This document shows positions 1-54,431 of a stretch of DNA of 64,000 bases, piece after piece. Numbering within the stretch: the first letter of the stretch is position 1; every line of letters starts with the position of its first letter. Source of the DNA: Lentilactobacillus rapi DSM 19907 = JCM 15042 (GTDB lineage: Bacteria; Bacillota; Bacilli; Lactobacillales; Lactobacillaceae). The stretch spans positions 1 to 64,000 of the forward strand of contig NZ_AZEI01000078.1 of NCBI RefSeq assembly GCF_001436255.1, read 5' to 3'. A program made the position numbers and the translations under genes. The notes beneath the pieces were generated by a model that was not told where the DNA came from, did no database searches, and saw only the letters and a program-made list of their open reading frames with translations.

Positions 1-2134
1 TCCTTTTTTGCAAAAGTATACCAAAACTCAATTTAGATCTCAAACAGTTTCTTAGAAGTGCAACTATTGCAATTCCAATAATGACGAGGAACAACAGGGC
101 AACTGCCAAATAAATCAGAATTCTAGAATTCTGACTGAACCTTTGTTGAACTGTTTTGCCAGGCTCAATTGCCGCCTGTTTTTTAAAGCGATAACTGAAA
201 TGATTGTTATCTGGATCGACAAGCAGGCCATCTTGATTGCGGTACATCTGGATATTTTTTTGAAAATCAAGTTGAGTCGAGCCTAAAACTGCCGCCGTCG
301 GAGTGGCGCCAGTAACCACCAATAACGCCCGCCTTTTATTAAATGGCGACCTTAACAGTTGGGCAGTCCCAACGGTCTTCCCGTACTGGTGTTCAATACT
401 CAGTTTTTCATTTGAGACCAAACTTGAGAAGTGATTTCCGAACTGAAAATACAATTGGGGATTCAACGACTTGATGAACGGGTTCTGTTTGGGTGCACCA
501 AAAGCAATTACACTACTCCGTTTTAATTGGTCTCGACTTGGGCGATGACTCACAAACGTCACCTTCCCGGTATTACTTTGGGCATAGTTCCCAATCAGAT
601 TAAAGATATTGGATAACGTTTGAAAATCCGGGCCTGTCATCGTTTTTGGCCGGACTACCATCAAGTTATCAAAAGTTTGATTCTTGATGAAGACCCCTGG
701 ATAATTACTAAATAGCAAACTATTTTTGGGCTGGGACTTAATAATCGCCTTTGAATTTGAGCTAACCGTTGCCCATGGCGTTTGATTGTTATTGGCTCTT
801 GATTGGTCATCAATATCCAGATCAAAAGCAACGCGAACGGTAAACTCGTTTCCTAACGAATGCCCCGCTGGAAATTTGACCGTTAGCTCATCATCATTTG
901 CATGCTTGGCGGTTAACTTTTTACTACCAATCGGTCTGTTATTAATCAGGACCGTTACCATTGATCGCTTAAAGTTCAAATTCTTGGCATATCGAAAATG
1001 AAGTCTTACCTCAGAACCATCAGCATTGTCACGATCTACCGGCAAGCTCACAAAGTACGCTTGCTCCTGGTGATTAGCACCGACAATTTGGCTATCTTGT
1101 TTCGTTAATTGAACGCTGCCATCATATTGCAATACTGACGTATATGTCGGCGTATCCTGTGTGATCACCTTGGTGGCTTGGCTGGTTTCCTTCATCAACT
1201 CTTGATTGGCAACATATTTGGCTGCTTTCTTCAAGAGAGTGCCATTCTTAGCTGTCACAATTAATAAATGTTTGGTTTTCGTATCATGGGTTTTGATAAC
1301 GGCCTGATTGGTGACATCACTTTTAGGTACCATTTTTTTGATATTAGCGGGTAAATGGTCGTAAGTTGCGATCACCAGTTGATAGGCAGCCTTTTTTGCC
1401 TGTGAATCATTAAAGGTTGTGACAGGAATTTGGTCGGTTTCAGTCGTAATAACGCGTGATTGCCCACAAAGTGCATACATCCCAGCAGCCAATTCATTAT
1501 TTGTCGGCTGACTAGATGTTGTAATCACCGCATCACGGTTCACAATTGTATCCGCACCGGTAAAGTGGTCATAAAAGGACTTGACCGATTTCGTTGGTGG
1601 CACCAACTGATATTTGAAATTGACATTCGCATTTTTATAAATTGTCAGCCAATTAGCCGGTGTTTGAGCGAGTTGGTAATTTTTGTGACCACCCTTATTT
1701 AAGATCTGGCCGCTCACCTCAATGTTGTTCTCTCCACTCAGTAAACGAGTTGGAATGTTAATTTTCTTGGTTTGGATTCCCGAAACCCGTTTGGGCCGAA
1801 AGGAATAAAATTTAACGTTGTTTACAGAAACTGTGATGTCTGAAATCTGTTTATCACTGAGTTGAGAAACTTGAAAGTTTAAGTTCAACGTTGCCCGTTT
1901 AACATCCCAATACCCCATTTTCACAAAATACATGTTTGTTTGAACTGCATTTCCAGAAAGGGTCACTGTTTGATTTTGAAAAGGTTGGGTATAGGTTTGA
2001 TCCTTGGCAAACGCTGCTTTACCAGAAACAAAAAAGATCCCTAGAGTTAATAACATTAACCCAGCCCAAATGACGATTTTATTTATAGCGAACGGTTTTA
2101 TACCATTTCGCTTGTTTATGAAAGATTTGTTCAC
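1..2134 (-). CDS. BcsB-like exported polysaccharide synthase subunit (3' end cut by window)
   Basis: The frame stays open from about 2134 to the window edge, giving about 711 residues with no stop reached. The first ATG (2056) would leave only a stub of a signal peptide. A GTG at 2134, preceded by GGTGGGGT, gives a complete one: a basic n-region (MNKSFINKR), a hydrophobic core and an AFA cleavage site followed by KDQ. I therefore prefer GTG, which overlaps the upstream GT2 gene by 56 bases. The mature part is a long, beta-rich extracellular region, and near the window edge there is one C-terminal membrane helix followed by basic residues, so only a few codons are missing. This size and topology match BcsB/YdaN-type proteins, which escort the polymer made by a BcsA-like partner. 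The partner gene lies directly upstream. The family call rests on layout and neighbours, so it is good but not certain. Confidence 0.75.
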   Translation of the reverse strand, partial: MNKSFINKRNGIKPFAINKIVIWAGLMLLTLGIFFVSGKAAFAKDQTYTQPFQNQTVTLSGNAVQTNMYFVKMGYWDVKRATLNLNFQVSQLSDKQISDITVSVNNVKFYSFRPKRVSGIQTKKINIPTRLLSGENNIEVSGQILNKGGHKNYQLAQTPANWLTIYKNANVNFKYQLVPPTKSVKSFYDHFTGADTIVNRDAVITTSSQPTNNELAAGMYALCGQSRVITTETDQIPVTTFNDSQAKKAAYQLVIATYDHLPANIKKMVPKSDVTNQAVIKTHDTKTKHLLIVTAKNGTLLKKAAKYVANQELMKETSQATKVITQDTPTYTSVLQYDGSVQLTKQDSQIVGANHQEQAYFVSLPVDRDNADGSEVRLHFRYAKNLNFKRSMVTVLINNRPIGSKKLTAKHANDDELTVKFPAGHSLGNEFTVRVAFDLDIDDQSRANNNQTPWATVSSNSKAIIKSQPKNSLLFSNYPGVFIKNQTFDNLMVVRPKTMTGPDFQTLSNIFNLIGNYAQSNTGKVTFVSHRPSRDQLKRSSVIAFGAPKQNPFIKSLNPQLYFQFGNHFSSLVSNEKLSIEHQYGKTVGTAQLLRSPFNKRRALLVVTGATPTAAVLGSTQLDFQKNIQMYRNQDGLLVDPDNNHFSYRFKKQAAIEPGKTVQQRFSQNSRILIYLAVALLFLVIIGIAIVALLRNCLRSKLSFGILLQKR

Positions 2135-3437
2135 GAATATACCCCACCATTCCGTATGCTGCCACAGCCAGCCACATTTGACTATATACAAGATACATAA
2201 TCATTATCAACAATAAATTTGATCCAGTCATCTCACCCTTCTCAGTTGTGATCGCCGTAAATGTACTAATCACAAACAACACAACCGCAAAGGCCCAGAC
2301 AACGTTACTGAAGCCCTGCAATTCTGAATGAGCATATCCAGCCACTGATAGAACAAACACAGTATCTGAGAGGATTAACGATGTCATCAATAAAAAATAA
2401 ATCGATGCAAAATACAATAAATCAAATCGAATTTTTCGCGCCCTTTTTGAAAAAAGTAAATGCATATTCTTTAAAATGACATAAATATTGCCCTTCACCC
2501 AGCGCGTTCGCTGATGAAACCAAACACTCAAAGTTTGGGGTTCTTGCTCCCAGGTCACCGCTGCGGGCTGAAACTCGATGCGATAGCCCATTTGATAAAT
2601 CCGAAAACTAATTTCAGTATCCTCAGCCAATGCTTTGACATCCCAACCGCCAACCTTCTCAAGGAGGGATCTGCGGATAACATAATTGGTTCCCGGGATC
2701 GTACACAATTTAAACAGTTGCCGGCGTCCTGCCTGGGCCATCCACTGAAAAGCCAACGTTTCAATATTGATAAATCTCGTCAGAATCGTGGCATTCTTAT
2801 TTCGGGTCCTAAACTTACCAATTACAGCACCAACCTGCTCATCCTGCAGCAATTCCGCCACTAACGTTGAAAGAGCATCTTTTTCAGGCGTGTTGTCAGC
2901 ATCATAAACTGAAATCACGGTTCCTTTTGCAGCTCGCAAGCCAATGTTTAAAGCATTTGATTTACCCTTACCACCCGTTTTCTGGTCCGTGTTAATGACG
3001 ACCAATTGACGGTCAGCATACAAATCCTGGAGTCCTTTTAACAATTCAGCGGAATTATCGCTTGAGTTGTCGTTGATCACAATAACTTCATACCGTGATT
3101 TGGGATAGTCAAAATCAAGCAAGGCCTGAACCGTCTTAACGATCACGACACCCTCATTGTGAGCGGGCACCATGATTGAAACAAATGGTGGTTCATCTGG
3201 TAATTGGGGCCTTTTGGTATGTGCCCATTTTAAATAATATGTATAGCCGGCTATCGTGAGTACGAGGTTAATGATCAAAATACCCCAAATGGAAATGATC
3301 GCGACTAACAAAAATGCATCCAGAATCGAAATGATGATCCCCTCTTTCATTGAATGTGCCAATTGTCCAAATATTGATCTTATGCTCCGAAAGCTAATCG
3401 CTTGCTTTCGCACTCTGGTTGAAATGTGCTCAATCAA
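2079..3437 (-). CDS. BcsA-like family 2 processive glycosyltransferase
   Basis: This is an integral-membrane GT2 synthase that would polymerise a cell-surface polysaccharide. An N-terminal hydrophobic stretch is followed by the GT-A domain beginning at PPFVSIMVPAHNE. The domain contains the nucleotide-sugar motif DADN, the acceptor motif AEDTE and the processive signature QRTRW. Several C-terminal membrane segments follow. There is no PilZ domain, unlike Gram-negative BcsA, so direct c-di-GMP control is not expected from this chain. It sits between a DUF2334-like gene and a BcsB-like gene, as in ydaL-ydaM-ydaN of Bacillus. The start is uncertain: the longest frame begins with TTG at 3437 inside a tandem repeat, and an ATG at 3352 just before the first hydrophobic segment is an alternative, although it lacks a good ribosome site. 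The polymer cannot be named from sequence. Confidence 0.85.
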   Translation of the reverse strand: MIEHISTRVRKQAISFRSIRSIFGQLAHSMKEGIIISILDAFLLVAIISIWGILIINLVLTIAGYTYYLKWAHTKRPQLPDEPPFVSIMVPAHNEGVVIVKTVQALLDFDYPKSRYEVIVINDNSSDNSAELLKGLQDLYADRQLVVINTDQKTGGKGKSNALNIGLRAAKGTVISVYDADNTPEKDALSTLVAELLQDEQVGAVIGKFRTRNKNATILTRFINIETLAFQWMAQAGRRQLFKLCTIPGTNYVIRRSLLEKVGGWDVKALAEDTEISFRIYQMGYRIEFQPAAVTWEQEPQTLSVWFHQRTRWVKGNIYVILKNMHLLFSKRARKIRFDLLYFASIYFLLMTSLILSDTVFVLSVAGYAHSELQGFSNVVWAFAVVLFVISTFTAITTEKGEMTGSNLLLIMIMYLVYSQMWLAVAAYGMVGYIREQIFHKQAKWYKTVRYK

Positions 3438-3786
3438 GCAGCGACTTCCATATAAGCACCTACTGGAAAAATTCCAAGAGCGGGAATTCTCCCAGTAGGA
3501 GACTTATATTCCAGTCCCTAACCGCTTGCTTTCGCACTCTGGTTGAAACATGCTCCTCCAAGCAACAATCTGCATGTAAGCACCTACTGGAAAAATTCTA
3601 AAACCGGGAATTTTCTCCAAAGAAGACTTACATTCCGATTGCTAACCGCTTGGATTCGCACTCTGGTTGAAATGTGCTCAATCAAGCAGCTTTCTGCTCA
3701 TAAGCGCCTTCATCAAAAATCCAAACCCGGGATTTTCGTTGAAGGCCACTTACGCTTCGAAAGCTAATCGCTTGCTTTCGCACTCT
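3376..3786. repeat. Tandem array of three ~124-bp repeats with internal hairpins
   Basis: Units begin at 3394, 3518 and 3642 (CTAAYCGCTT), with periods of 124, 124 and 122 bases. A 23-base partial unit starts at 3764 and the tail of another lies before 3394. The shared blocks are CGCTTGCTTTCGCACTCTGG, TTGAAATGTGCTC and a variable inverted repeat. Each unit can form a hairpin (3452-3507, 3576-3631, 3700-3753) closed by RTAAG/CTTAY. The array abuts the stop codon of the upstream gene at 3785 and runs into the 5' end of the GT2 frame. I do not recognise the family. Confidence 0.85.
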
Positions 3787-5338
3787 ATCTTTTGAACATT
3801 CCCACATAAATTTTTCTGCCAATCACAATAAAAACCAGCAGGACGACCAAAATCGCGCTAAATAAAATCAATAACACATGTGACTGAAATTTGAAAAAGT
3901 GGTTTAAGGATCCGGTCACCGTTTCGGGAGTTGTCTCCTCGGGCTGACGGCTTCCGGCCTTGCCCACATCAACTGGACTGCCATTCAGAAAGTAGGTTCC
4001 CTTTCGATAATGATAATTGGCGGAACCAAATTTAACTTGCGCGTCCAATTGAGTTGCCGGGTTTAGCCACCGGAAGGGCAGTCGGTCAACTTTTCTTTCC
4101 AAATCCCGTAAACCGACTTGGGTGGTTGGCATTCCAAAGGTCACCGCAGTTGGCATGGCGAAAGTCATCTTTTGTCGTTGGCGGATTGTGAGCAAGTTAT
4201 CCCCTGTCAAACCATAGTAACTTTGCTTAAACACCTGGGAATTTCTTGTTGAGGTCACCTGATGTTGCCGTTGAGAGTTTGGCAACAGCACAACCTGATC
4301 AGCAGTTTTTAACCCTTGACGCTGATACAGCTGATTCTGGTTCCAAAAGCCGTCGGTACTGATTCCCACGGGAAATACATGATTTTGACCCAGACTGGTC
4401 AATTCTGTAATCATCAGCTGATTAAGCTGCCGCTGATCCGTTTGATAAGCTGTTACAGCTGGTGTCTTTAAGAAGACAATCCCATTTCTGGTCTCGATAT
4501 TTCTGAGGACCTTGGTAAACCGTTTAAATGCCGCCAAGTCTGTATTGGCACCAACACTGGTTGTACTAATTGCAAATGGTATTCCGCGGTCAAAGAAGTC
4601 GCGGCTCAGGTGGTTAAGCAATTTTAGGTTTGAATATGGCGTGACATTTGTGATCGTCAATAAAGGTTGCTGCTTGTCTAGCTGCTGTTGAAACAATTTG
4701 CCAATCAATTGAGAAGCCACCTGTAATGCCAGGCCATTGACCGAATAAAACGGCAGGTACCCAGATTTGTGGTGAATGATCCCAGCTGCAAATTGACGCT
4801 GCTGAACTTCTTGAGTTGTCAATTTTCCAAATTGTTGAATCTTGGTTGACTTGCCGGGTTTAAAAACCGTCAGGGTATCACTCAATGGCAGTAACTGAGA
4901 ATGACCGTGCGCGTCACTCAAGATGAGCTGTTGATGGCGCAGAGTTTCAGCAGCACCCCCAATTTGGTCAGCCTCTGCTTTGGTCAAATTGCCGCCGATA
5001 TGCAGCTTAATGCCAGAAAATTGGTGCCGATCGTGTTGAAACTGACGATTATTAACAGGGTTTTGCGCCCAATTGACCATCGTAATGACGCCACTATACT
5101 TTCCGTTTCGGAGCATTCCAGAACGGTACTGAGATTCAGCGATCGTTCGAACACTCAATTGATGACTCGTCAAAAGCCGTTGTAGGGAATCGATTTTTCG
5201 GTATCCGTGATCAGCCGAATTCTGTGAATCATAAACGAGTAATACCCGATTAGTCGCCGCAGCAGCGGGCAAAAATTCTATAAAGGCTAACCCAATCAAG
5301 GCCAGGAGAACCACAAGTAGTTGTCTTAAAAGTTTCAT
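3785..5338 (-). CDS. Exported DUF2334/YdaL-like protein of the polysaccharide operon
   Basis: A 517-residue protein begins with a cleavable signal peptide (MKLLRQLLVVLL, then LPAAAA) and ends with one C-terminal membrane helix and basic residues, so most of it is extracellular. The start at 5338 is chosen because GGAGAAG precedes it and it gives an ATGA overlap with the upstream gene. The mature region starts NRVLLVYDSQN. Near the middle it has a segment, TITNVTPYSNLKLLNHLS, that aligns with the start of the deacetylase-like DUF2334 fold. The paired aspartates and the HG..H element normally used to bind metal are not visible, so it may be a binding rather than a hydrolytic protein. Its position directly before the synthase matches ydaL of Bacillus. 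The family assignment is by inspection and synteny. Confidence 0.55.
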   Translation of the reverse strand: MKLLRQLLVVLLALIGLAFIEFLPAAAATNRVLLVYDSQNSADHGYRKIDSLQRLLTSHQLSVRTIAESQYRSGMLRNGKYSGVITMVNWAQNPVNNRQFQHDRHQFSGIKLHIGGNLTKAEADQIGGAAETLRHQQLILSDAHGHSQLLPLSDTLTVFKPGKSTKIQQFGKLTTQEVQQRQFAAGIIHHKSGYLPFYSVNGLALQVASQLIGKLFQQQLDKQQPLLTITNVTPYSNLKLLNHLSRDFFDRGIPFAISTTSVGANTDLAAFKRFTKVLRNIETRNGIVFLKTPAVTAYQTDQRQLNQLMITELTSLGQNHVFPVGISTDGFWNQNQLYQRQGLKTADQVVLLPNSQRQHQVTSTRNSQVFKQSYYGLTGDNLLTIRQRQKMTFAMPTAVTFGMPTTQVGLRDLERKVDRLPFRWLNPATQLDAQVKFGSANYHYRKGTYFLNGSPVDVGKAGSRQPEETTPETVTGSLNHFFKFQSHVLLILFSAILVVLLVFIVIGRKIYVGMFKR

Positions 5339-6822
5339 TTTGCCGTCTTCTCCCCTGGATGATCCGATTTGGCGGGCATTCCCCACAAACGATGATTCAT
5401 CCAATCAGCAATCAAAAGGATCCATGCCAAGCTCAGACTGACCGCAACCGGAAACATATTTCTCGAAAGATTATATGTACCATACGAAACGATATCAATG
5501 ATTGGCAACAAAATCACGACAGTTGATAGTCCCAATACCAAGAAGAACTTGAGAACTCCTTCGATGTTGCGGTGCCGAAAACTATTCACCATTCCGATTG
5601 TATAAACCACCAACAAAGCAGCCATTACCAGCAGATTAAAGGCACATTTTCTCGGATAAAAACTTTGCATTAACAAACTATACCCTGAAAAATATTGGGT
5701 TTTTGCTCTCGGCAACTTTCCTGCAGCCGCATCATAGTTACCAACCGATTGAATTCGAATTTGCATCACATTTTTGGCCGCATCATCCAATAGCCGCAAA
5801 AACTGGGAAAAATGATTAAAATAGTATCCGGTTATCCAAGCCGCATTAAGCTTATTGATCAGGTGTCGATGAACATATTTTGAATCCGGCAGAATGGCTG
5901 AGTAAGTGTTGGGATAATAATCGTTATCCTTCATTAACGCATACTGTGAATCAATCCCCCCAGCTGTCACTTTTAAAGACGGCTCAGTCGTTTGCAAGAC
6001 ACCATGGGTAAAAGCTTGATATCGATTCAAAGACTGATATCGCGTCGCCACTGTCTGATGGACAAAGGCTCCCATCCCGATCAAAGCCAACATACCAATC
6101 ACAACATATACTTGGGCTAAACGTCCTTTGAAAACAAACAACAACCCACAAGCCATGATTAAAAGCCCCAAAGTTAAGGGGACATTATGGTAATCAACCG
6201 CAATTAACAACAATGAAGCCGCAAAAAAAGCAATCGTCGTTAACCGATGATGCTTCACTAATTTACGGGTAATCAATAAAAATAAACCGGAGCAATAAAG
6301 CATTAAAATGTACGTTCCGGCTTCGGGATAAAAGGAATTAAACGGGATGGTAAAGGCGGTGTCTGCAAATACAAAAACAATAATTAATGCAAGCACATAA
6401 TTGCGGACATTACGATGAGATGCCGTTAGCCCCCGGGTTAAGAGATAAATTGCTCCTAAGAAAAATACATAGTAAACAACCCCCAGGAAACGGATATCGA
6501 AAACACGGGAGCTGGCGAATACTTTGTTAAGCGCAATGGCGGCTTTAACAAATAAAAACTGAGATGAATAAATTGGAACCGCATTCTCATTGTAGAATTG
6601 CATGATCCCAAATTTTTCGATCACATAGTTAAAATAGACTGAACCATGGGTGCTCAACCGATAAAGGCCGTTTTGTGAAAGCACCTGTAAAAAGTCCCCA
6701 TTATCCGCAAGCCCGTTGACAGGAGGAACGAACAACAAATAACCAACGATGACTGCACACAAAATTGTGGCAAGCAACGCTGGCGAAATGAACTTTATTA
6801 ATCTTTTTATACCAGAAATCAA
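5335..6822 (-). CDS. Polytopic membrane protein, GT-C glycosyltransferase-like
   Basis: A 495-residue protein with about ten hydrophobic segments. After the first helix an extracellular loop carries NGLADNGDF, a motif resembling the catalytic acidic loop of GT-C enzymes and of WsfD-type hexose transferases. A large loop (about residues 250-350) and a hydrophilic C-terminus follow. It is the first gene of the polysaccharide operon and overlaps the next gene by four bases, so the two are probably translationally coupled. It may add a side sugar or modify the polymer outside the membrane, which is inference. The start is TTG at 6822 with GTAGGTAG upstream, since no closer ATG gives a full first helix. 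The region from 6823 to 7120 upstream holds AT-rich promoter-like DNA but no gene I can support. Confidence 0.55.
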   Translation of the reverse strand: MISGIKRLIKFISPALLATILCAVIVGYLLFVPPVNGLADNGDFLQVLSQNGLYRLSTHGSVYFNYVIEKFGIMQFYNENAVPIYSSQFLFVKAAIALNKVFASSRVFDIRFLGVVYYVFFLGAIYLLTRGLTASHRNVRNYVLALIIVFVFADTAFTIPFNSFYPEAGTYILMLYCSGLFLLITRKLVKHHRLTTIAFFAASLLLIAVDYHNVPLTLGLLIMACGLLFVFKGRLAQVYVVIGMLALIGMGAFVHQTVATRYQSLNRYQAFTHGVLQTTEPSLKVTAGGIDSQYALMKDNDYYPNTYSAILPDSKYVHRHLINKLNAAWITGYYFNHFSQFLRLLDDAAKNVMQIRIQSVGNYDAAAGKLPRAKTQYFSGYSLLMQSFYPRKCAFNLLVMAALLVVYTIGMVNSFRHRNIEGVLKFFLVLGLSTVVILLPIIDIVSYGTYNLSRNMFPVAVSLSLAWILLIADWMNHRLWGMPAKSDHPGEKTAK

Positions 6823-7228: not shown

Positions 7229-7301
7229 TGACCCCACCCGGACTCGAACCGGGATCAACCGCTTAGGAGGCGGGTGCCCTATCCAGTTGTGCTATGGGGC
7301 C
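7229..7301 (-). tRNA. tRNA-Arg (anticodon CCT)
   Basis: Read on the minus strand, this is a 73-base cloverleaf with acceptor GGCCCCA/TGGGGTC, a D-arm containing AACTGGATA and an anticodon loop CTCCTAA giving anticodon CCT, which reads AGG. The T-arm is CCCGG-TTCGAGT-CCGGG. The 3' CCA is not encoded. There is an A-G mismatch in the D-stem and a C-T mismatch at the top of the anticodon stem, so a covariance search should confirm it, but all landmark bases are present. Confidence 0.92.
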
Positions 7302-54352: not shown

Positions 54353-54431
54353 GTTATATTCCTCCATGTTCCTGTGTTTGTTCGACACCAAATAAGATTC
54401 CGGGGCTTATCGTGGGGCAAACAATACCAAC
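54353..54431 (-). ncRNA. Candidate L13 ribosomal-protein leader
   Basis: The 80-base leader between the promoter and rplM has a small hairpin GTGT-CGAACAA-ACAC just before the ribosome site and a GC-rich segment (GCCCCACGATAAGCCCCG). Its place and features resemble the L13 leader of Firmicutes, which lets L13 repress its own operon. The match is from memory. Confidence 0.5.

What the first reader, a model, noticed from the sequence alone, without database searches (positions are those of the whole stretch)
3376..3786. Three tandem ~124-bp repeats with compensating hairpins inside the polysaccharide operon
Units start at 3394, 3518 and 3642 plus partial copies at both ends. Each unit keeps a hairpin although the stem bases differ: CCTACTGG/CCAGTAGG in unit 1, CCTTCA/TGAAGG in unit 3, and closing pairs ATAAG/CTTAT versus GTAAG/CTTAC. 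Such paired changes suggest selection for RNA structure. The array starts at the stop codon of one gene and reaches the start of the next, so it could set the ratio of the two products.
Basis: seen in the sequence. Interest (0 to 1): 0.75.

Follow-up and report, generated by a model that had tools for sequence, protein, structure and literature searches.

The report
Dispersed hairpin repeats at gene edges
The three tandem hairpins are copies of an abundant DNA repeat of lactobacilli that sits at the edges of genes and changes its copies quickly, so it looks like a mobile or recombining repeat rather than a control switch of this one operon.

Summary
In detail: window 3379-3786 holds three full units (122, 124, 124 nt, minus strand) and a 38-nt partial unit. 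Its scope is wrong: this is not an operon-specific device. The unit belongs to a dispersed family in Lentilactobacillus: 168 units in 68 arrays, beside unrelated genes, in 57 sequences of this genome. Matches occur in 93 of 251 Lactobacillaceae genomes, but in only 3 genomes outside the family among 299 sampled from the class. No Rfam family reached threshold. The ~110-nt hairpin covaries strongly and folds better on one strand in 145 of 145 units. Placement is sharp: in 48 of 64 arrays the unit's 5' end lies at a stop codon, or 13-25 nt upstream of a start codon, pointing away from the gene; at the 3' end 7 of 64; at random intergenic points 3.7%. Between two close species 24 of 33 units at 15 shared sites were replaced. 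Best reading: a REP/MITE/BOX-like mobile or recombining repeat with unknown mover; neither Y1 transposase nor reverse transcriptase tracks it. An effect on the two neighbouring genes was not tested.

The parts
3665..3786 (-). unit 1 of the array (122 nt); its first two bases AG complete the TAG stop codon of the upstream gene
3541..3664 (-). unit 2 (124 nt); inner stem imperfect, right arm shares CCAGTAGG with unit 3
3417..3540 (-). unit 3 (124 nt)
3379..3416 (-). partial unit (model positions 1-38, left arm only)
3785..5404 (-). upstream gene (ORF as listed from a TTG; a start at 5338 is also possible); no Pfam match for 3788-5338; its stop codon TAG overlaps the array
2079..3350 (-). downstream gene, glycosyltransferase family 2 (423 aa from the ATG at 3350)

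Best explanation
The array is one address of a high-copy, dispersed hairpin repeat family of Lactobacillaceae. A unit of about 119-125 nt folds on one strand into a ~110-nt hairpin with fixed bulges. SHOWN: units are dispersed beside unrelated genes; in three quarters of the arrays tested the 5' end of the folding strand lies at a gene edge (at a stop codon, or a little upstream of a start codon) and points away from the gene; at sites shared by two close species most units have been replaced; unit number changes; linkers between units tend to repeat the left flank of the array. INFERRED: a founder unit is placed at a gene edge by a machinery that acts in trans and recognises the hairpin of one strand; arrays then grow by added or duplicated units, and recombination between copies overwrites the interiors. 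In the window such an event hit the stop codon of the upstream gene and now separates it from the glycosyltransferase gene. The family behaves as a non-autonomous mobile repeat (REP/MITE/BOX-like); effects on host genes would be side effects.
For: Dispersal: 53 BLAST matches of the window array in its own genome with 40 of 147 candidates scored; 148 covariance-model matches, 148 of 1436 candidates scored (such lists can hold opposite-strand self-matches of the palindrome, as seen); 168 non-overlapping units in 68 arrays in 57 sequences. Structure: (95.4% of cells paired, covariation score 0.501 against 0.185 in shuffles, 0 of 500). One strand: 145 of 145 units fold better on the unit strand. 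Placement: 48 of 64 at the 5' side, 7 of 64 at the 3' side, 3.7% of 1236 random intergenic tests; loci of other genomes 20 of 24 arrays at the 5' side, 0 of 24 at the 3' side, not all independent. rplI: in 18 of 21 relatives without a matched array the native stop codon lies exactly where the unit's TGA lies in G000, G003 and G009. Turnover: 15 shared arrays of G000 and G003, 9 of 33 units at identity 0.90 or more, 24 at 0.72-0.85, flank blocks of these pairs 88-99% identical; in one two-unit array the linker is unchanged while both interiors differ. 112 pairs of units at 93% or more in different arrays lose identity within about two bases outside the unit. Linkers resemble the left flank (2.81 of 5 nt against 1.99, sd 0.14; 0 of 2000 permutations). 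Units ride on plasmids.
Against: G006 and G009 are drafts of 20 and 120 contigs, so a lost transposase gene is possible there. A target-site duplication right of the last unit is not significant (p 0.10, 45 arrays). Empty sites were compared only across flanks of about 73-84% identity, so no insertion was dated or fixed to the base, and two of the four sites hold shorter hairpins that may be remnants. The G000-G003 sample was picked from loci with arrays and cannot show empty sites; shared sites fit old insertions plus recombination as well as continuing transposition. 16 of 64 arrays do not follow the edge rule. The excess of G-T pairs over A-C mismatches outside the four columns of fixed G-T pairs is modest (78:35, 27:15, 24:10; lower bootstrap limits 1.26, 1.00, 1.21).
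Confidence: 0.72

Rival explanations
1. A cis-acting RNA element that sets expression of the adjacent operon genes: hairpins after the stop codon change stability or readthrough and so the ratio of the two products.
For: The window array and 13 others of 64 lie at a stop codon, with the folding strand being the mRNA strand; strong folding; unit number differs between species.
Against: In 34 of 64 arrays the folding strand is antisense to the neighbouring gene, and units of that class fold better on it by the same margin; neighbours are unrelated by eye; units at one site are exchanged between close species.
Confidence: 0.12
2. A barrier at gene exits: at either end of a gene the strand that leaves the gene runs into the hairpins in folding orientation, so arrays stop or process sense transcripts at the 3' end and antisense transcripts at the 5' end.
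For: One orientation rule covers both classes: the folding strand points away from the gene, also in loci of other genomes; some rplI relatives without units carry other hairpins after the stop codon, several of terminator type by eye; two terminator-like sub-stems lie inside the window array (0.7 expected).
Against: No T-run follows the full hairpin on the unit strand in the window. Many relatives have no unit match at rplI and GAPDH.
Confidence: 0.1
3. The stem changes are made by the copying process itself: arms of quasi-palindromes correct each other, or whole hairpins are swapped, so covariation needs no selection for structure.
For: Units are overwritten between copies; half-replaced units with mismatched arms exist, such as unit 2 of the window.
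Against: Arm correction would turn G-U pairs and bulges into perfect palindromes, yet one U-G pair is kept in 35 of 38 units, three further pairs are G-U in 17, 19 and 23 of 38, and bulge columns are largely conserved.
Confidence: 0.2

Closest known systems
BOX elements of Streptococcus pneumoniae (PMC3049150, passages read)
   Same: small dispersed hairpin repeats with a module that can be repeated; read there as parasitic non-autonomous elements that may affect neighbouring transcripts
   Different: BOX is a boxA-boxB(n)-boxC composite; here whole units repeat. The paper calls its repeats apparently dormant; here units are replaced quickly at shared sites. The gene-edge orientation rule is not in the passages I read
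REP/BIME palindromes with RAYT transposases (PMC2817692, passages read)
   Same: high copy number, extragenic, palindromic; nearness to stop codons in general is recalled
   Different: units about three times longer, tandem in one orientation rather than alternating, and no Y1 transposase found in several genomes rich in units
MITEs such as RUP and Correia elements (named in passages)
   Same: short, strongly base-paired, dispersed copies with sharp ends
   Different: no significant target duplication at the right end; fixed orientation to gene edges; no parent IS identified or searched beyond PF01797
Integron attC sites / Vibrio cholerae repeats (recalled, no call)
   Same: ~124-bp imperfect hairpin folded on one strand, placed at stop codons
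   Different: no cassette genes between units, also placed reversed before start codons, in tandem without genes; integrase and core sites not searched

Membership tests
known Rfam family | match at or above a gathering score | tested here: not met
   (window): only an L13 leader and a tRNA elsewhere; (12 of the 39 array loci then fetched): only microRNA-precursor matches far below their gathering scores
REP with RAYT | Y1 transposase (PF01797) present in genomes with many copies | tested here: not met
   7 of 24 genomes (G003 only fragments); none found in G001, G006, G009, G017, which have 83, 148, 148 and 107 matches; G001 is nearly closed, the others are drafts
REP with RAYT | 20-40 nt palindrome in alternating orientation (BIME) | tested here: not met
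   units 119-125 nt; neighbouring units lie in one orientation, opposite-strand hits there being overlapping self-matches
retroelement | reverse transcriptase in genomes with many copies | tested here: not met
   8 of 24 genomes; none in G001, G006, G009
MITE | short element with dispersed near-identical copies and sharp ends | tested here: met
   112 pairs at 93% identity or more in different arrays; identity falls off within about two bases outside the unit. Recombination between copies would give the same ends
MITE | target-site duplication | tested here: inconclusive
   linkers resemble the left flank, but the right end does not significantly (p 0.10)
MITE | parent insertion sequence with the same ends | not tested
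   no search for a parent IS was made beyond PF01797
intrinsic terminator | hairpin followed at once by a T-run | tested here: inconclusive
   the full hairpin has no T-run after it on the unit strand, but two terminator-like sub-stems lie inside the window array (0.7 expected, sd 0.8); other arrays were not scanned
integron attC | integrase and core sites | not tested
   recalled features only

The most novel reading that the evidence does not exclude
A new class of very active hairpin element that reads gene edges: a machinery without Y1 transposase or reverse transcriptase recognises one strand of a ~120-nt hairpin and places or rewrites it at stop codons and just upstream of Shine-Dalgarno sequences, pointing away from the gene, so that scores of lasting addresses per genome (68 arrays read here) are continually rewritten.
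Probability: 0.3. Interest if true: 0.85.

Novelty: new variant of a known kind. Interest (0 to 1): 0.64.

Why it matters
Dispersed repeats are usually thought of as loosely intergenic. Here a family with a precise, oriented gene-edge rule and rapid replacement of units at lasting sites gives a directly testable case: what machinery senses gene edges, and whether translation or transcription boundaries mark the DNA. The family reached no Rfam threshold and no feature is annotated under the 20 plasmid matches listed, although the repeat borders many genes of food bacteria and rides on plasmids as far as Listeria.

Tried and rejected
Operon-specific regulator: rejected as the main function. Known RNA family: none. 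Phage origin: no match in 50,697 phage records. Y1 transposase or reverse transcriptase as mover: do not track copy number; the single Y1 gene of this genome has no unit within the 3.4 kb fetched around it. Target duplication at the right end: not significant. Plain tandem duplication as the origin of arrays: units of one locus are not clearly more alike in their stems than units of different loci (middle stem z -2.1, inner z 1.8); the outer columns are (z 3.6). A small gene between arrays as the mover (L017, L027): one looks like a YafQ-type toxin by eye and the other is probably not a gene. Pfam on the two genes upstream of the array: no match.

Literature: nine searches listed no paper whose title or printed start of abstract describes this family; for only part of the papers found was listed. 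Passages were read in PMC2267715, PMC3049150, PMC5217627 and PMC2817692 only. No bioRxiv preprints and few subscription papers are held, so earlier description cannot be excluded.

Full report
WHAT IS THERE. The repeat reported at 3376-3786 is real. Read on the minus strand, which is also the strand of the flanking genes, it is three full units, 3786-3665, 3664-3541 and 3540-3417, and a partial unit 3416-3379. Each full unit folds into one long hairpin, far better than shuffled sequence (z -7.0, -4.6, -7.2). The first two bases of unit 1 complete the stop codon TAG of the upstream gene. The downstream gene encodes a family 2 glycosyltransferase; the two genes upstream of the array have no Pfam match. 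Only 4 of 24 genus members have this glycosyltransferase, and the other three show no unit near its start. In one of them (G023, 76% identical) the stop codon before it and its ATG are 15 bases apart by eye, so I infer that the array opened up a tight gene junction; the upstream sequence of the nearest one (G009) was not analysed.

IT IS A FAMILY. BLAST of the array in its own genome gave 53 matches with 40 of 147 candidates scored. A covariance model of 38 units matched 148 of the 148 candidates that were scored in this genome, of 1436; such lists can contain opposite-strand self-matches, as a few rows show. In 57 sequences read closely (56 fetched loci and the first 8 kb of the window; most were fetched because they had matches) I found 168 non-overlapping units in 68 arrays of one to six units. 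The whole 64-kb window has only this one array. The model matched 19 of 24 genomes of the genus (E up to 0.01), 93 of 251 genomes and 23 of 36 genera of the family, this genome included (E up to 1e-4, best 14 candidates per genome scored), and 4 of 299 genomes of a class sample: this genome and three of other families with one weak match each (best 11 candidates scored). The genus is Lentilactobacillus, because the genus member G010 is identical over 4272 bases to L. kosonis; the family name follows from that. Partial relatives lie on 75 plasmid records, among them 16 of Listeria; a Listeria plasmid stretch holds a nearly complete unit. That unit lies 22 nt before the start codon of a gene that by eye encodes a metal-transporting P-ATPase, and the same array came up in five genomes of four other genera. 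No phage record matched and no Rfam family.

STRUCTURE. On the 38-unit alignment 41 pairs were counted: 95.4% of cells pair, 25 pairs have two-sided changes, the covariation score is 0.501 against 0.185 in shuffles with 0 of 500 as high, and sliding the partners by one column drops pairing to 43-44%. The counts are cells, not independent events, and units are exchanged between copies (below), so the number of independent compensations is lower than it looks. One strand is preferred: in 145 of 145 units the unit strand folds better, by about 12 kcal/mol, whatever the orientation to the neighbouring gene. G-T pairs exceed A-C mismatches about 8- to 9-fold in all classes. Without the four columns rich in G-T pairs the excess is about two-fold and modest (START 78:35, STOP 27:15, other 24:10; lower bootstrap limits 1.26, 1.00 and 1.21).

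PLACEMENT. Of the 68 arrays, 64 with a complete 5' end were tested. The 5' end of the unit strand lay 13-25 nt upstream of a start codon in 34 cases, in antisense orientation and mostly just beyond a Shine-Dalgarno-like sequence. In 14 cases the first base of a stop codon lay between 11 nt before and 2 nt after the first base of the unit, in sense orientation; 16 fitted neither. At the 3' end the same test succeeded in 7 of 64, and at random intergenic points in 3.7% of 1236 tests. In 10 of the 14 stop-codon cases bases of the unit form part or all of the stop codon (offsets). In 22 loci from other genomes, of the genus and of other genera, 20 of 24 arrays followed the rule at the 5' end (with a slightly wider start window) and 0 of 24 at the 3' end; these are not all independent, since five are one shared locus and several others look orthologous. 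At rplI, of 24 genus members, G000, G003 and G009 have arrays; in 18 of the other 21 the native stop codon lies exactly where the unit supplies one, and in three it lies one or two codons further on. Three species (L184, L188, L190) carry hairpins at the same codon that look like diverged subfamilies by eye. At the GAPDH gene G000, G003, G006 and G009 carry arrays 22-23 nt before the start; the other 20 loci show no match, but five of these are probably a second GAPDH gene.

TURNOVER. G003 is the closest relative seen. For 15 shared arrays (flank blocks 88-99% identical), 9 of 33 G003 units have a partner of 0.90 or more in the orthologous array and the other 24 lie at 0.72-0.85, close to the 0.75 mean of units in different arrays. 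For one array (L254/L162) only two of three units on each side were compared. Left out of this count were L247/L035, which is denser in units, further pairs with only one matching flank or a partial one (L248/L172, L256/L164, L259/L042, L260/L016), and rplI. Unit number differs in 5 of the 15. In L251/L036 the linker and flanks are nearly unchanged while both unit interiors differ, and in L245/L027 only part of the hairpin was replaced. The sample was chosen from loci that carry arrays in both genomes, so it says nothing about how many sites are empty. In a 20-kb comparison some sites were occupied in one species and lacked a unit match in another, but with flanks at about 73-84% identity the junctions cannot be fixed to the base, and two such sites hold shorter hairpins that may be remnants.

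HOW ARRAYS FORM. Units of one locus are not clearly more alike in the middle and inner stems than units of different loci (z -2.1 and 1.8); the outer columns are (z 3.6). Linkers resemble the flank left of the array more than expected (2.81 of 5 bases against 1.99, sd 0.14, 88 linkers of which a few stem from partial units, 0 of 2000 permutations). The right end shows no significant copy of the flank (p 0.10, 45 arrays). Near-identical units in different arrays lose identity within about two bases outside the unit (112 pairs). This fits growth at the gene-side junction, by insertion or by duplication of junction plus unit, followed by overwriting of interiors from a genome-wide pool. Homologous recombination between copies would give the same sharp ends, so insertion and conversion are not separated.

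WHAT MOVES IT. Y1 transposase was found in 7 and reverse transcriptase in 8 of 24 genus members. G001, a two-contig genome with 83 matches, has neither. The mover, if there is one, is unknown.

VERDICT. The finding is a good observation with a wrong scope. The array is one address of a dispersed hairpin repeat family that works like REP, BOX or MITE repeats but, on the tests made, is not a REP/RAYT system and not a retroelement, and has no identified parent insertion sequence. The gene-edge rule, the single orientation and the fast replacement at lasting sites are the parts worth following. Nine literature searches listed no description of the family, within the limits of that library.

Noticed in passing
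window 3541-3664: Unit 2 shares its right-arm CCAGTAGG with unit 3 but has a left arm that does not match it: a likely scar of partial overwriting.
   Followed up: partly
window 3330-3378: The glycosyltransferase gene has no clear Shine-Dalgarno sequence before its ATG at 3350; by eye, relatives suggest a start at an ATT a few codons later, behind AGAGGGG, in this genome and in G009.
   Followed up: partly
L051 3001-3117; L152-L156: A unit upstream of a P-type metal ATPase gene is shared by plasmids and genomes of several lactobacilli and by a Listeria plasmid, so the repeat travels with a metal-transport gene.
   Followed up: partly
L184, L188, L190 (rplI 3' ends of G008, G022, G013): Other long hairpins begin exactly at the rplI stop codon in three species; by eye they look like further subfamilies that the profile detects weakly or not at all.
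   Followed up: partly
L180, L186 (rplI 3' ends of G006, G014): A different hairpin (TTAAGCCAA...TTGGCTTAA) follows the rplI stop codon; possibly another repeat family.
   Followed up: no
window 54371-54428 and 7229-7301, minus strand: Ribosomal protein L13 leader and a tRNA gene.
   Followed up: no
L017 1872-2138: A small YafQ-like toxin ORF between two arrays in opposite orientation (named by eye).
   Followed up: no
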